In this document: positions 11,609 through 61,453 of the stretch, in pieces
Layout: every line of letters starts with the position of its first letter
How positions within the stretch are numbered: the first letter of the stretch is position 1
NCBI GenBank assembly: GCA_003169845.1
Contig: PNAG01000028.1
Coordinates: forward strand, 207,490-271,489
From: Candidatus Dormiibacterota bacterium
GTDB lineage: Bacteria; Chloroflexota; Dormibacteria; Dormibacterales; Dormibacteraceae
Direction of reading: 5' to 3'
DNA length: 64,000 nt
Program-made: the position numbers and the translations under genes
Notes under the pieces: model-generated
What the model was told of the DNA's origin: nothing
Databases searched by the model: none
Seen by the model: only the letters and a program-made list of their open reading frames with translations

Positions 11609-12732
11609 CCTCGCTCGACCTGGCCACTTCGCTCTTGCGGTCGCGTGCCGGCCTCAAAGCCGAGCCGGCGAGCCAGGCCAGGCTCAAGCGGTTGCTTCAA
11701 GAGAGCGCGACCCTCGCGGGCATCCCGGTGGACGCTTACGTCAGCATCGTCGACACACAACCCGCCGCGTTCGACGACCTGCTCGACAGGGTCACCGTTC
11801 AGCACAGCTCGTTCTTTCGGGATCCCGCTCAATTCATTGCCCTTGACGGCCTCGTTCGCGGAGCAAATCACCTGGAGCACGTGCTCTGGAGCGCCGGGTG
11901 CGGCAACGGCCAGGAACCGTACAGCCTGGCGATGGCACTCGATGAGGCCGGTCGCGACGATTGGCACGTGGTGGCCACCGACGTCTCGTTTCGCGCGCTT
12001 GCCCGAACGGAGAAGGCCCATTACAGCGAGTCCGAGGTCCACGGCTTGTCGAGCGAGCGCAGGCGTCGATATCTCACCGCGAGCCGCGACGGATACGACG
12101 TCAACCCTTCGATCCGGCGCAAGGTGCGCATCGCGCACCACAACCTGGCGATCGACGATGCAAGCTCGATCGTTCCCAGGCCGGCGGTCGTGTTCTGCCG
12201 CAACGTCCTCATGTACTTCGGACGCGAAGAGTCGATGGCCTGCATTCAGCGCATAGCCTCTGTGATGGATCCAGGCGGGCATCTCTTCCTCGGCCATTCG
12301 GATTCGCCAGGACCGATGAACCGGTACTTCGCAGAGGTCCGGGTGGCCGGGGCTCATTGCTACCAGCGGCTGTCTGCCGCTCCGGTTGCGTCAGTGGTTG
12401 GAAAGCCGGCGGCCGGTATGCGCCCACCGCGCGACCTGCCCGGCCTGATGACCGAAGGAGATCGCGCCGCCGCCAGCGGCGACATTCGGACCGCAGTCCG
12501 CGCGTTCCGGCAAGCGACATATCTCGACCCTAACGTCGCGATCGCCTACTTTCAGCTCGGCGCGGCGCTCGAGCTCGCGGGCGATGCGCGCGAGGCGCGA
12601 CGCGCTTTCGGCGCGGCCGGCCTGGCGATGGTCAACGGAGACGGCACCGAAGACGACTCGGGGCTCGGGGGCTACACGCGCCGCGACCTGGCCAGCGCCA
12701 TCGCTTACAAGCTCACAGGCGGGCAGCACTGA
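11605..12732 (+). CDS. cheR: CheR-type MCP methyltransferase with C-terminal TPR-like region
   Basis: SSFFRDPAQF, WSAGCGNGQEPYSLAM, VFCRNVLMYFG, LFLGHSDS motifs; C-terminal repeat AIAYFQLGAALELAGDAREARRAF. Confidence 0.9.
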   Translation: MTSLDLATSLLRSRAGLKAEPASQARLKRLLQESATLAGIPVDAYVSIVDTQPAAFDDLLDRVTVQHSSFFRDPAQFIALDGLVRGANHLEHVLWSAGCGNGQEPYSLAMALDEAGRDDWHVVATDVSFRALARTEKAHYSESEVHGLSSERRRRYLTASRDGYDVNPSIRRKVRIAHHNLAIDDASSIVPRPAVVFCRNVLMYFGREESMACIQRIASVMDPGGHLFLGHSDSPGPMNRYFAEVRVAGAHCYQRLSAAPVASVVGKPAAGMRPPRDLPGLMTEGDRAAASGDIRTAVRAFRQATYLDPNVAIAYFQLGAALELAGDAREARRAFGAAGLAMVNGDGTEDDSGLGGYTRRDLASAIAYKLTGGQH

Positions 12733-53305: not shown

Positions 53306-53350
53306 GCTGGCGTAGCTCAATTGGCAGAGCAGCTGTTTTGTAAATAGGTG
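53306..53350 (+). tRNA. Truncated tRNA-Thr (anticodon TGT), lacking T-arm and 3' acceptor
   Basis: GCTGGCG-TA-GCTCAATTGGCAGAGC-A-GCTGT-TTTGTAA-ATAGG matches tRNA 5' half; no GGTTCGA T-arm or CGCCAGC 3' strand follows. Confidence 0.65.
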
Positions 53351-53456
53351 GTCTGCCGCTGAATGCGAAATCGGCCCAAAAGGGCCTTATGACCCGTTGT
53401 TTAAAACAACTGAACTGCACTTCGTGCCGCTGCGGTAAGAATGCCTTGATGACCGA

Positions 53457-55122: not shown

Positions 55123-55416
55123 GCCGAGGAAACCTGTATGAGATTCTTCGAGGGTCTTGCGAACACAGCAAAACTACTACACGAACTGGCTCTACTAGCG
55201 CTCGGCATGGCAACCAGGGCGGGGAGCCGCTTCGGCCGGTTGCGAATTCAGTTTAGCCCCCGATCCCCCTGTCAGAAATCATGAACTCTTGGGCTCCCCG
55301 CGCCCCCAAGATCCTTCTGGGAGGGCACCGAAACCGCCGAGCTGCCACCTCGCGCTCAAACGTGGCCTCGACGGACCGACTGAACCCGACAGGTCGGAAG
55401 TCCTAGCCTGGCGATC

Positions 55417-55857
55417 CTATCCTTCGGTCATCCTGACCGCCAGCCAGAAGATCCCCAGCGTCACAACCAAAAGCAACACGGATACCACGCGGGACACGGC
55501 GATCGCACGACGAGAATCCATGCGGCGCCCGGCCACGGTGTGAACGGCGGTGAGCGCCACGACCAATAAAGCAAGGCTCGTCTTCGTTTCCAGGAGTCGG
55601 CCGAAGTCGGTTCGTGGCAGCGCCGAGAGGTTGTAGCCGAGCCGGGGCCACGCCATCGCAGCTCCCGAGACTGCGATCAGGGCCCACGCTATGACGGACC
55701 CGAGCAGGAAGGCTCGCCCGGTTCGTGACATCAAGCACCGGAAGGTTGGCCGGTCCAGAGTTCGCGCCGCGATCACGGCGACCACCGCGAGGAAGATCAT
55801 GCCGCCGAGCCAGAAAGCCGCAGCGACCAGATGAATCAGCCGCCAGGTCTCGTCCAA
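55417..55857 (-). CDS. CopD-like membrane protein
   Basis: LIHLVAAAFWLGGMIFLAVV...; four hydrophobic segments. Confidence 0.6.
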   Translation of the reverse strand: MDETWRLIHLVAAAFWLGGMIFLAVVAVIAARTLDRPTFRCLMSRTGRAFLLGSVIAWALIAVSGAAMAWPRLGYNLSALPRTDFGRLLETKTSLALLVVALTAVHTVAGRRMDSRRAIAVSRVVSVLLLVVTLGIFWLAVRMTEG

Positions 55858-55972
55858 CCTCTCGACACATGATGGGGTCCCGGCGACGGGGAGGTTGGGC
55901 GGCAGCGACCTCGAGTCACCGTGAACAAGGGATCAACTGATTCGGACAGGCGTTTCCTCGCCAGTCTCGGCA

Positions 55973-56665
55973 TCAGAAGGGCAACACCCAGCCGACCAGG
56001 GCCGCCAATGCAAACAGCGCCAGGACCGCGTTGGTTGCTCCGGGTCGCGCAAGCCCTCTACGAAGTGGTCCCCCAAAGGCGAGGACCAACCAGGCCAGCG
56101 GCATCGCCACCAACTCCGCGACTCCAGCGGTGGTCGCCTGCCCTGAGTAGCTCGGATAGACGAATGCGTTTGCAAGCTCAGCCAGTACGAGCGGCCACAT
56201 GACCACGTTGGCACCGATGAACAGGGCTGCTTTCCGTGCCCCGCTGAGCTGGGGTACCGCCCAGCCCATGGCACCGCCTCCGATCAGCAGCGTCGCGTGC
56301 GCGAATATGTGTGCGGCTTGATTGGACTCTGCCCAGTTGAGCAGAGGCGGCAAGTGCCACGCGAACGCGGCGGCCAGTCCCGCCCAGGCCACAAGAGTTC
56401 GCCCCGGAAGCCTCACCAGATCGCGGAACTGGTAGCCCACGATGGCTCCGGCGACAACCCACAGCCAGTGCGCGAAGTGATGCACGACCAGGCTGTGAGC
56501 ACTCGGACCCGCCACTGTCGGCGACACAAGAATCAACAGCAGCAGCGGCCCGGTAAGCCAATCTCGGGCGCCCGCAGACGCCGATCTAGACCTCGCTGGG
56601 TGCAAGCTCAGGGCCAGGTGCAGGCTCAGGCAGGTTGTAGCGGGGTGAGTCCAAGAAGACGTCAA
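55973..56665 (-). CDS. His-containing multi-pass membrane protein, possible oxidase assembly/accessory factor (start uncertain)
   Basis: HSLVVHHFAHWLW, AFAWHLPPLLNWAESNQAAHIFAHATLLIGG; overlaps 3' end of the heme-copper subunit gene. Confidence 0.5.
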   Translation of the reverse strand: MTSSWTHPATTCLSLHLALSLHPARSRSASAGARDWLTGPLLLLILVSPTVAGPSAHSLVVHHFAHWLWVVAGAIVGYQFRDLVRLPGRTLVAWAGLAAAFAWHLPPLLNWAESNQAAHIFAHATLLIGGGAMGWAVPQLSGARKAALFIGANVVMWPLVLAELANAFVYPSYSGQATTAGVAELVAMPLAWLVLAFGGPLRRGLARPGATNAVLALFALAALVGWVLPF

Positions 56666-58115
56666 TCAGGTCCTTACAGACCATCACGGCACCCGTCAGC
56701 GCGACCGCGGCGCACGCGACCGCGATCCACGCCAGAACCTCTGTCCCCGACAAGGGATAGAGATACCGCCTGGGCGCGGACATGCTTCCCGAGATGTACC
56801 AGCACAAGACCAGACCGTAGCCGCCGAAGCCCATCAGCGCCGCCGCACGGCGCCCGACGTTTTCCTTCATCTGCCGGCCGGTGAGTTTCGGAACGACGTG
56901 ATAGGTGGCGCCGATCAAAAAGAACATCACTCCCAGCGCCATGTAGGTGTGAAAGTGAGCGGGCACCCAGAGCGTGTTGTGGAATAACTGGTTGAGCGAG
57001 ATGGTGGAATCGATCACAGCCCCGAACCCGCCGATCGCCCAGCCGGCCATGGCCATGAGCGTAAACAGCGGAGCTGCGCTCCATCTGATGCCGGAGCGCC
57101 ATACCAGCACCAGACCACCGTAGATGGTCACGGTCATCGGGGGGATGGCCGCGGCATACGAAACGACGTTTCCCACCCACTGCACGGCTTCGGGCTGGGC
57201 GAAGTCCTGGTACAGGTGATGGAAGAACGCCAGCATGACGATCGCCAGCGTGGCGAGCCAGCCGGCAACCAAGGCACGGCTCAAGCGCCAAGGACGCTTC
57301 GTGTAGAGGGGTAGAACGCTGTAGGCGATGCCGGCAGCCACGTAGATCTGGAGGTTGGCGAGCGTGTGGCCGGTGAAGTAGATCATGTTCTTCGCCACCA
57401 GCGCGTTCAGGGTCAGGCTGGGGAAGACCAGGCTGGTCAGCATTAACACCACGATCAAAGTGCCGATGACGCAAGCGCTGAGGCCGAGGATCGCACATAC
57501 GGTGCCGGCGATGAGGCTCGGGTTGGTCGTGGTCGGATCGTTCTCACCAGAGTGACCGTGGCCTGCCGAGCCGAAGACGTAGAAGCCGAGAAGCCGCTGG
57601 AGACTGCCGCAGCGCTTGAGGCCCGCCCGCAAGAAGTCGAGGCACCAGAGCAGGAAACCGACGACCGCCAGCGCCAGCCCGATCAGGTAGGCGGCCGCGC
57701 CGATCGCCGCGGTCACAATTCCTGAGCCGGGGTGCTCGGGCAATGGGTACAGGAACGTCCAGGCGGACGAGTAGCCGAAAACCATGACCGCGAGCACGAT
57801 CATGACCAGGCCGCTCAGAGTCAGTAGAAAGACGATTCGGTTGACGGGGACGCTGAGCTCGACCTCATTGCTCACCAGATACCAGAGCACCCCCGCCCCG
57901 GCCATCAGGCCCACAACCACCATTCCACTGCCGTGGACGCTCATCACCTCGTAGAAGACATCGGCGCTGAAGAGGTTGCCGCCGCCGGCTTGAGCGAGTC
58001 GCATGGAGCCGCCGGCCAGGGCCAAGCCCAGCAAGACCAAGCCGCTGGTCACCAGCCAGATCCTGGTGATCCGCTGGGCGCGGAGCTGCCTCAGCAGCAG
58101 CAGCCGGTCGTGCAT
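56586..58115 (-). CDS. Heme-copper oxidoreductase catalytic subunit (B-type-like), helix-VI Tyr replaced
   Basis: Heme/Cu ligands VMSVHGSG, YFTGHTLANLQIY, FFHHLYQDF, FHNTLWVPAHFHTYM; the HPxVY-type motif reads HTLAN. Confidence 0.88.
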   Translation of the reverse strand: MHDRLLLLRQLRAQRITRIWLVTSGLVLLGLALAGGSMRLAQAGGGNLFSADVFYEVMSVHGSGMVVVGLMAGAGVLWYLVSNEVELSVPVNRIVFLLTLSGLVMIVLAVMVFGYSSAWTFLYPLPEHPGSGIVTAAIGAAAYLIGLALAVVGFLLWCLDFLRAGLKRCGSLQRLLGFYVFGSAGHGHSGENDPTTTNPSLIAGTVCAILGLSACVIGTLIVVLMLTSLVFPSLTLNALVAKNMIYFTGHTLANLQIYVAAGIAYSVLPLYTKRPWRLSRALVAGWLATLAIVMLAFFHHLYQDFAQPEAVQWVGNVVSYAAAIPPMTVTIYGGLVLVWRSGIRWSAAPLFTLMAMAGWAIGGFGAVIDSTISLNQLFHNTLWVPAHFHTYMALGVMFFLIGATYHVVPKLTGRQMKENVGRRAAALMGFGGYGLVLCWYISGSMSAPRRYLYPLSGTEVLAWIAVACAAVALTGAVMVCKDLIDVFLDSPRYNLPEPAPGPELAPSEV

Positions 58116-58645
58116 GTGGAAACGTGAAGGGCCATGAACATGGAGCTGTGGCCGGGACCGCAGTACTCGAGGCAACGGACGGTGTAATCACCCGGCTCGG
58201 ACAACTGCAGAACCAGGTGATTGGTGTATCCGGGCATTGCTTGCACCTGTCCGACCAGGTGACCGGAGGGGTCGTAGAGCCCAAAGTCATGATTGACGTC
58301 CACGCTGGTGACCGCGAAGTCCACCTTGCCCCCAGTCCCGACCGTTCCGTCGAGCCGCCAGGAGTACTGGCTGCCGGCAACATTGACGTGCATCGCAGCC
58401 GGTCCCGAGGCGAGTCGGTAGTTCGCGTATGGGACGTAGGGCAACGCGGTTAGGAACACCGCCGCCAAGATGCCGCCGAGTGCGAAAAACCAGAACAGTC
58501 GCAGCCGGTAAGCCCGTCCGGCCACCTCCGGATAGGGCGTCGGACCACGGCGCGCCACTTGCGAAGCCACTACGAAAACGCAACCGAGTACCAGCGCACC
58601 GGCCAGGAAGATCCCAAAGGCCAGGTAGGTGATCATCAGCTCCAC
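58091..58645 (-). CDS. Cytochrome c oxidase subunit II-like protein with CuA site
   Basis: DVNHDFGLYDPSG and CLEYCGPGHSSM CuA-binding motif. Confidence 0.88.
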   Translation of the reverse strand: MELMITYLAFGIFLAGALVLGCVFVVASQVARRGPTPYPEVAGRAYRLRLFWFFALGGILAAVFLTALPYVPYANYRLASGPAAMHVNVAGSQYSWRLDGTVGTGGKVDFAVTSVDVNHDFGLYDPSGHLVGQVQAMPGYTNHLVLQLSEPGDYTVRCLEYCGPGHSSMFMALHVSTCTTGCCC

Positions 58646-58762
58646 CCTCCAGCACCGCCGGTGGTGGCGGCGTCATTTTCGATCTTTATGGTCGTCATCG
58701 TCCGGCTTCGATTTTCACGTCATCCATATTATTCACTATTGATACCGTATAATTCAAGGCCC

Positions 58763-59488
58763 ATGACCGACGTCTCCGTGAAGACGCACAAGGCCCTAGC
58801 TGACATCAGCCGCTTCCGGATTCTCGAGGAGCTGCGTGGGCAGGGCCCTCTCGACTCGCGCGAGCTCGGGAGTTTGGTCGGGCTCCACCCCAACACCGTC
58901 CGCTCGCATGTCGACCAGCTCATCGAGGTGGGCCTGGTCCGCGCCGTGACTGCGCCGGCCAATGGTCGCGGGCGCCCGCGCGTCCTTTATGAGGCGATCG
59001 CGGATTCCACCTCAGTGCAACAAGGCGGTTACCGACTTCTGGCCCAGATCCTGGCCAGCTATCTCGCCAGCACCGACCAGCCGCAGGCAGTCGCCGAGAG
59101 CGCAGGCCGCGCCTGGGGCGGCTACCTGACCGAAAAACCGCAGCCGTTCAGTGGGATCTCGGCCGATGAAGCCACGCAGAAGGTGGTTGACCTCTTCGAC
59201 CAGCTTGGATTCATGCCCGAGGCCGTGGAGGAATCCGCGGAGCGCAAGATCCTGCTGCACCATTGTCCCTTCCGAGAGGTGGCGGAGTCGAATCAGAGAG
59301 TCGTGTGCGCCGTCCACCTGGGCATGTTGAAGGGCGCGCTGGCGGAGATGGGTGCCCCGCTGCAGGCCACCCGGCTGGAGCCCTTCGTGAAGCCCACCCT
59401 ATGCATCGCCCACCTTCGAGGAGGCGCCGCTGCGCGACCGTCAGGAGGTATCCGCCTTGCACGTTCAAGACATCCAGCCATCGCCTGA
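58763..59488 (+). CDS. HTH transcriptional regulator with C-terminal Cys/His motif (COG2345/SufR-like)
   Basis: KALADISRFRILEELRGQGPLDSRELGSLVGLHPNTVRSHVDQLIEVGLV; C-terminal HHCPFREVAESNQRVVCAVHLGMLKG. Confidence 0.8.
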   Translation: MTDVSVKTHKALADISRFRILEELRGQGPLDSRELGSLVGLHPNTVRSHVDQLIEVGLVRAVTAPANGRGRPRVLYEAIADSTSVQQGGYRLLAQILASYLASTDQPQAVAESAGRAWGGYLTEKPQPFSGISADEATQKVVDLFDQLGFMPEAVEESAERKILLHHCPFREVAESNQRVVCAVHLGMLKGALAEMGAPLQATRLEPFVKPTLCIAHLRGGAAARPSGGIRLARSRHPAIA

Positions 59489-61026: not shown

Positions 61027-61136
61027 CGGCAGCGGGGGCACGCCGGTGTGGGCGAGTTAGTAACCGCGATCCACGGAATGCAATTCAGGTGGGCACGCTT
61101 CCGAGTCGATGCCGCCGGTCGGTGTACGGTTTGGGA

Positions 61137-61307
61137 GTGCCCCGCCGCAAACGCAAAGCTTCTGGACCTCAACCAACGGCGAAGCCGCAGAGCAGCGATC
61201 AGGCGCCCGGCGAAGAGGTGGTCCAAGTCAACGACCAGTACAGGGGCGGCGAGCCCGCCCCCGACATGCAGCAAGAGGAGCAGGCGCAGCACCAGACCGG
61301 GGGGTAG
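61137..61307 (+). CDS. Small charged hypothetical protein
   Basis: GTG start; VPRRKRKASGPQPTAKPQSSDQAPGEEVVQVNDQYRGGEPAPDMQQEEQAQHQTGG. Confidence 0.35.
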   Translation: MPRRKRKASGPQPTAKPQSSDQAPGEEVVQVNDQYRGGEPAPDMQQEEQAQHQTGG

Positions 61308-61453
61308 CCCAAATCCGGCCATGTGACCAACAATCCGTGCCGTTTTGCAGTCCGTCTCCAATTGAGAGGTCTTTGGATTTGGCTTGAGCTATCCTCGGGT
61401 GGGCGTCCGCTGTGCGCGATTTCCTTGGCGATACGCGAGGTTGGCATAGTTTG

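What the first reader, a model, noticed from the sequence alone, without database searches (positions are those of the whole stretch)
56586..58645. B-type-like heme-copper oxidoreductase lacking the helix-VI active-site tyrosine
Seen directly: all heme and CuB histidine motifs are present (HGSG, GH, HH, HxxxWVPxHFH), but where B-family oxidases have GHPxVY (the Tyr crosslinked to a CuB His) this protein reads GHTLAN. A CuA subunit lies next to it (CLEYCGPGHSSM). Established: helix-VI Tyr is required in A/B-type O2 reductases, and its loss is typical of nitric oxide reductase lineages; C-type oxidases move it to helix VII. Inference: this may be a CuA-type NO reductase or an oxidase with a relocated Tyr, not a standard cytochrome c oxidase.
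Basis: partly seen in the sequence, partly recalled or inferred. Interest (0 to 1): 0.78.

Follow-up and report, generated by a model that had tools for sequence, protein, structure and literature searches.

The report
sNOR-type CuA nitric oxide reductase
This looks like a copper-dependent enzyme that turns toxic nitric oxide into nitrous oxide, from a known but little-studied family (sNOR and relatives), found here in a soil bacterium with none of the other denitrification enzymes we searched for; it is a distant new member rather than a new kind of enzyme.

Summary
Window 58115..56586 (-) encodes an intact heme-copper subunit I. All six metal-binding histidines are present, but Asn stands where O2 reductases carry the cross-linked helix-VI Tyr (GHTLAN). 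An overlapping upstream gene encodes a CuA subunit II.

Asn here is the published mark of sNOR and bNOR. Relatives include Ruegeria and Nitrosomonas, recognised sNOR hosts. In my tree the protein falls inside a 64-row all-Asn clade (support 100), apart from ba3 (Tyr), eNOR (Gln) and A-type oxidases (Tyr). All 89 aligned members have Asn, and none has Tyr at the C-type helix-VII position, so a relocated Tyr is not supported. A 12-helix subunit I and two-helix subunit II match 'type II' CuA NOR, not bNOR.

It is a deep branch with two Actinomycetota sequences, outside the Nitrosomonas-type clade: a divergent member of a known kind. The host, a Dormibacterota-like MAG, has no detectable NirK, NirS, NarG or NosZ, which suggests NO detoxification. 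The four-gene block appears horizontally shared between genera. In the papers I could read, NO reduction by sNOR itself is not directly shown; a published rival view makes it an oxidase.

The parts
56586..58115 (-). Subunit I, heme/CuB catalytic subunit, 509 aa from the ATG; Asn254 (codon 57356..57354) at the helix-VI Tyr position
   Evidence: Pfam COX1 2e-56; alignment of 89 members; trees; AlphaFold2 model with 12 long helices, pLDDT 88
58091..58636 (-). Subunit II, CuA cupredoxin with two N-terminal TM helices; overlaps the start of subunit I by 25 bases
   Evidence: Pfam COX2 4e-6; CLEYCGPGHSSM and two hydrophobic helices; best plasmid matches are the partner subunits of Thermomicrobium, Parasedimentitalea and Ruegeria
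55973..56665 (-). DUF1404 membrane protein, possibly a CtaG-like copper-centre assembly factor; start uncertain
   Evidence: Pfam DUF1404 3.7e-10; hhalign against CtaG of other loci of the family, probability 56%, E 1e-4; kept in G008 and G025
55417..55857 (-). CopD/DUF4149-like membrane protein, last gene of the shared block
   Evidence: Pfam CopD 7e-7, just under its cut-off, and DUF4149 1.9e-6; DNA similarity to G008 and G025 stops here
58637..58762 (.). 126-bp divergent intergenic region; promoter-like site on the minus strand at 58757-58728
   Evidence: consensus scan only, no functional evidence
58763..59488 (+). Divergent winged-helix regulator, weakly SufR-like with C-terminal Cys residues; candidate Fe-S NO sensor
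   Evidence: NCBIfam SufR_cyano 6.8e-7, below its cut-off; Pfam HTH_20; translation. Link to the enzyme is inferred from position only

Best explanation
The two genes encode a CuA-type nitric oxide reductase of the sNOR kind. Electrons from a periplasmic donor enter at CuA in subunit II, pass to the low-spin heme in subunit I and reach the high-spin heme/CuB centre, where two NO are joined to N2O. This takes two electrons and no Tyr radical; Asn254 sits one turn beyond a CuB His where oxidases hold that Tyr. In this organism, where no nitrite or nitrous oxide reductase was found, its likely job is to remove NO made by neighbours or by chemistry, possibly under the divergent SufR-like regulator. 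Shown here: residues, subunit make-up, place in the tree, purifying selection. Inferred: substrate, electron donor, role and regulation.
For: Asn at the Tyr position in 89 of 89 relatives, against Tyr in 15 ba3 and 4 A-type and Gln in 7 eNOR sequences; Asn is the published sNOR/CuANOR residue (PMC8756737 Table A4; PMC3475470). One all-Asn clade, SH-aLRT 100, containing Nitrosomonas and Ruegeria. Both subunits have sNOR-type pairs as best plasmid matches. 12-helix subunit I and two-helix subunit II, as described for type II CuA NOR. CuA subunit next to subunit I in 88 of 92 loci, SCO in 40, Rrf2-type regulator in 8. Purifying selection. Asn-bearing bNOR of Bacillus azotoformans is a purified NO reductase.
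Against: No activity data for any member of this subclade. In the papers read, sNOR function is disputed: a transcriptome study suggests an oxidase (PMC6967387). No NO-producing nitrite reductase was found in the genome. No SCO/SenC gene beside it.
Confidence: 0.8

Rival explanations
1. It is a high-affinity terminal oxidase that reduces O2 without the usual helix-VI Tyr, using another residue (for instance the invariant Tyr258 further along helix VI) or none as the fourth electron donor.
For: sNOR genes of N. europaea rise under O2 limitation and the authors propose an oxidase role (PMC6967387). Tyr258 is invariant in 89 of 89 members and unique to the family; Tyr265 and Thr330 align with ba3 K-channel residues. 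The genome is that of an organism with two A-type oxidases and no nitrite reductase found.
Against: No Tyr at the helix-VI or helix-VII cross-link position in any member. Loss of the Tyr is the mark of characterised NORs.
Confidence: 0.12
2. It is an NO reductase but belongs to nNOR, or to an unnamed fifth lineage, rather than to sNOR.
For: The Asn clade has four groups and the query lies outside the Nitrosomonas/Ruegeria group, which is closed at 100/100. nNOR is named in PMC11388526 and PMC12569097.
Against: The paper that defines nNOR (10.1073/pnas.2316422121) was not held, so this could not be tested. It is a matter of naming and is compatible with the best explanation.
Confidence: 0.45
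3. It is a bNOR (CuANOR type I, the Bacillus azotoformans enzyme).
For: bNOR also has Asn at the Tyr position.
Against: bNOR is described as close to ba3, with 13 helices and a one-helix subunit II; here there are 12 and two, and ba3 is on another branch. No bNOR sequence was at hand for a direct test.
Confidence: 0.03

Closest known systems
sNOR / NorSY (Nitrosomonas; Ruegeria pomeroyi SPO_RS20755 and SPO_RS20760)
   Same: Asn at the Tyr position, CuA subunit II, short subunit I, all histidines, invariant Tyr258; about 37% identity to Ruegeria subunit I over 78% of the query
   Different: Outside the Nitrosomonas/Ruegeria clade; no SCO/orf1 beside it but DUF1404 and CopD-like genes
Thermomicrobium roseum plasmid pair TRD_RS11245/11250 and Chloroflexota relatives
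   Same: Asn, CuA subunit, CtaG-type gene downstream
   Different: Separate group in the tree, 100/100
Actinomycetota sequences L018 (Nocardiopsaceae MAG) and L019
   Same: Sister group, 100/100; up to 47% identity
   Different: L018 lies beside an aa3-type subunit I gene and a UbiA/CtaB-like gene; not in Dormibacterota
bNOR / qCuANOR type I (Bacillus azotoformans)
   Same: Asn at the Tyr position, CuA subunit
   Different: 13 helices, one-helix subunit II, close to ba3
ba3-type (B-family) O2 reductase
   Same: Overall fold, histidines, CuA subunit, one K-channel Tyr and Thr
   Different: Tyr always present at the cross-link position; separate branch

Membership tests
sNOR-type CuA NO reductase | Asn in place of the helix-VI Tyr | tested here: met
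   89 of 89, query included
sNOR-type CuA NO reductase | All six heme and CuB histidines | tested here: met
   H61, H250, H299, H300, H387, H389
sNOR-type CuA NO reductase | CuA subunit II with two TM helices and short 12-helix subunit I | tested here: met
   type II description in PMC3475470
sNOR-type CuA NO reductase | Nests with Nitrosomonas/Ruegeria sNOR | tested here: inconclusive
   Same all-Asn clade (100) but outside their closed group (100/100)
sNOR-type CuA NO reductase | senC/SCO gene in the operon | tested here: not met
   None in the window operon; present in 40 of 92 loci, so common but not defining
sNOR-type CuA NO reductase | No proton channel | tested here: inconclusive
   Two ba3 K-channel positions kept (Tyr265, Thr330), others lost
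sNOR-type CuA NO reductase | NO reductase activity | not testable with these tools
   needs biochemistry
bNOR (CuANOR type I) | 13-helix subunit I and one-helix subunit II | tested here: not met
   12 and two (definition)
eNOR | Gln at the Tyr position | tested here: not met
   Asn; seven eNOR sequences form another clade
gNOR | Asp at the Tyr position | tested here: not met
   Asn; no gNOR sequence in the tree
nNOR | Nests with published nNOR | not tested
   Defining paper not held; no reference sequences identified
B-type (ba3) O2 reductase | Helix-VI cross-linking Tyr | tested here: not met
   Asn; outside the ba3 clade
C-type (cbb3) O2 reductase | Cross-linking Tyr on helix VII | tested here: not met
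   Aligned position Val, Ile or Thr in 89 of 89

The most novel reading that the evidence does not exclude
The Asn-type CuA family, this member included, is at least in part an O2 reductase that does without the His-Tyr cofactor and uses the invariant Tyr258 or another group instead, which would break the rule that heme-copper O2 reduction needs a cross-linked Tyr.
Probability: 0.07. Interest if true: 0.85.

Novelty: new member of a known kind. Interest (0 to 1): 0.33.

Why it matters
Genes of this family are routinely annotated as cytochrome oxidases, so NO reduction and N2O formation are easily overlooked. This case places an Asn-type CuA NOR in a Dormibacterota-like soil bacterium with no recognisable denitrification pathway, in a gene block that appears to have moved between genera. 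It also gives a simple residue pair (Asn254 and Tyr258) that separates the family from every outgroup sequence tested here.

Tried and rejected
Sequencing error or pseudogene: rejected (copies in three genomes, dN/dS 0.07-0.12). A-, B- and C-type oxidase, eNOR and gNOR: rejected by residue and, where sequences existed, by tree. An in-genome denitrification pathway: NirK, NarG, NirS and NosZ gave nothing above cut-off. Rfam in 52-64 kb: no match. Conserved NO-related neighbours in the query's subclade: among 99 neighbours scanned only the CuA subunit recurs widely (14), plus four cytochrome c-like proteins. SufR-like, hemerythrin and cupin genes: no relative found in other family loci, and the upstream side is cut off by contig ends in G008 and G025. 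Inverted repeat in the divergent intergenic region: none. ARAGORN calls no tRNA for the tRNA-like fragments. One search was a mistaken search with a made-up placeholder sequence and is not used. The defining paper for nNOR was not held. One subunit II dN/dS value was out of register and is replaced.

Full report
OBSERVATION. The finding covers two overlapping minus-strand genes. Subunit I runs 58115..56586 from its ATG (509 aa) and subunit II 58636..58091. Pfam gives COX1 (2e-56) and COX2 (4e-6). All six histidines are present, and the residue four after the CuB His of helix VI is Asn (N254 counted from the Met, N274 in the 529-aa frame; codon 57356..57354). Subunit II has CLEYCGPGHSSM, an upstream His and two TM helices. 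The same Asn is in copies from two other genomes, 95 and 98% identical.

RELATIVES. In the PDB, phmmer reaches only oxidases, A-type and ba3 first, at modest E-values. In plasmids, the best matches of both subunits are the gene pairs of Ruegeria pomeroyi, Parasedimentitalea marina and Thermomicrobium roseum. Ruegeria pomeroyi was formerly Silicibacter (own knowledge), a published sNOR host (PMC8756737). A scan of one genome per species found 519 relatives; the best 80 include two Nitrosomonas, in which genus NorSY/sNOR is described (PMC4940428; PMC6967387; PMC3475470).

RESIDUES. In a joint alignment position 274 is Asn in 89 of 89 family members, Tyr in 15 ba3 and 4 A-type sequences, and Gln in 7 eNOR sequences. 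The eNOR sequences were pulled from the window's own phylum with a ba3 query and are called eNOR here by their Gln. This code agrees with the published table: O2 reductases Y, sNOR N, CuANOR (bNOR) N, eNOR Q, gNOR D. A second mark, Tyr258 (278 in the long frame), is in 89 of 89 members and in no outgroup sequence. The position aligned with the helix-VII Tyr of CcoN is Val (78), Ile (9) or Thr (2), so there is no C-type relocation. Tyr265 and Thr330 align with ba3 K-channel residues and are kept; the position of a second ba3 channel Tyr is lost.

PHYLOGENY. With 15 ba3, 7 eNOR and 4 A-type sequences the 64 Asn-type sequences form one side of a branch, SH-aLRT 100 (quick method; the program warns that the A-type and family branches are long). 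In a careful family-only tree four groups appear: Nitrosomonas/Ruegeria and other mostly proteobacterial sequences (100/100), a Bacteroidota/Acidobacteriota/Planctomycetota/Proteobacteria group (100/99), a Chloroflexota group with Thermomicrobium (100/100), and one with the query, Actinomycetota and Eremiobacterota (82/72). The query pairs with two Actinomycetota sequences (100/100) on a long end branch. No bNOR or gNOR sequences were at hand and the paper defining nNOR was not held, so the sNOR/nNOR border is open.

STRUCTURE. AlphaFold2 on 46 sequences gives pLDDT 88, pTM 0.89 and 12 long helices. Foldseek matches are cytochrome oxidases, TM-score about 0.8 by query length. Twelve helices with a two-helix subunit II fit the 'type II' qCuANOR of Bacillus azotoformans, not its 13-helix type I (bNOR) with a one-helix subunit II.

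CONTEXT. Downstream lie a DUF1404 protein and a CopD-like protein. DUF1404 weakly matches the CtaG proteins of other loci of the family by profile (probability 56%, E 1e-4; CtaG confirmed in Thermomicrobium), so a copper-centre assembly role is an inference. Divergent and upstream is a winged-helix protein weakly like SufR with Cys residues in its C-terminal part. M. tuberculosis SufR loses repression when NO damages its cluster (PMC9045647), so NO sensing here is plausible but unshown. A hemerythrin-domain protein and two cupins follow. Across the family, subunit II is beside subunit I in 88 of 92 loci, SCO in 40, and an Rrf2-type regulator in 8.

GENOME. The host is a Dormibacterota-like MAG, 94% complete (the nearest named copy is 'Candidatus Dormiibacterota' palsa_842). 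It has two A-type oxidases, this enzyme and a fourth weak COX1 match. NirK, NirS, NarG and NosZ were not found above cut-off. The enzyme is in 3 of 61 relatives and 8 of 399 genomes of the phylum.

SHARED BLOCK. The stretch 55396-58657 is 92% identical to G008, and its available part 95% to G025; both are other genera, and similarity stops at the end of the CopD-like gene. dS of subunit I is 0.20 and 0.16 against 0.66 and 0.53 for ctaD in the same pairs, and 0.30 for ctaD of G002, a same-genus genome in which the enzyme was not found. This points to recent horizontal spread; ctaD is the only control gene used.

FUNCTION. NO reduction to N2O takes two electrons and needs no Tyr radical, and the purified bNOR with the same substitution is an NO reductase. 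NO reduction is therefore the likeliest activity (0.8). Against this, a transcriptome study proposes oxidase function in Nitrosomonas. With no in-genome NO source found, detoxification or use of outside NO is the likely role.

VERDICT. It is a divergent member of a known family.

Noticed in passing
55396-58657; L152:61-3322; L153:11857-14255: Four-gene block (subunit II, subunit I, DUF1404, CopD-like) shared with two other genera at 92-95% DNA identity, about three times less diverged at synonymous sites than ctaD; looks recently transferred.
   Followed up: partly
53308-53412; L153:9442-9547 and 11632-11779; G008:C25:81235-81370: Repeat resembling the 5' part of a tRNA-Thr(TGT) gene, four or five copies per genome, lying near the block in the window and in G025 and on the same contig in G008. 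ARAGORN calls no tRNA there; possibly att-site remnants of an island.
   Followed up: partly
61111-61311; L153:9134-9334: 201-bp stretch 94% identical between the window and the G025 contig near the block, without explanation.
   Followed up: no
L020, L025, L026, L028, L030: In Solirubrobacterales and related Actinomycetota, subunit I reads 633-673 aa, well over 100 aa longer than in other members, perhaps a fused domain.
   Followed up: no
L145 (G174:C290:1-8787): A Chloroflexota genome carries an sNOR-type (Asn) and an eNOR-type (Gln) subunit I on one 8.8-kb contig.
   Followed up: no
L004 (G000:C29:1946-2143): Multi-helix protein with a weak COX1 match (33.7 bits), beside a frame that looks like a DUF59-type protein; reminiscent of NnrS-like proteins.
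   Followed up: no
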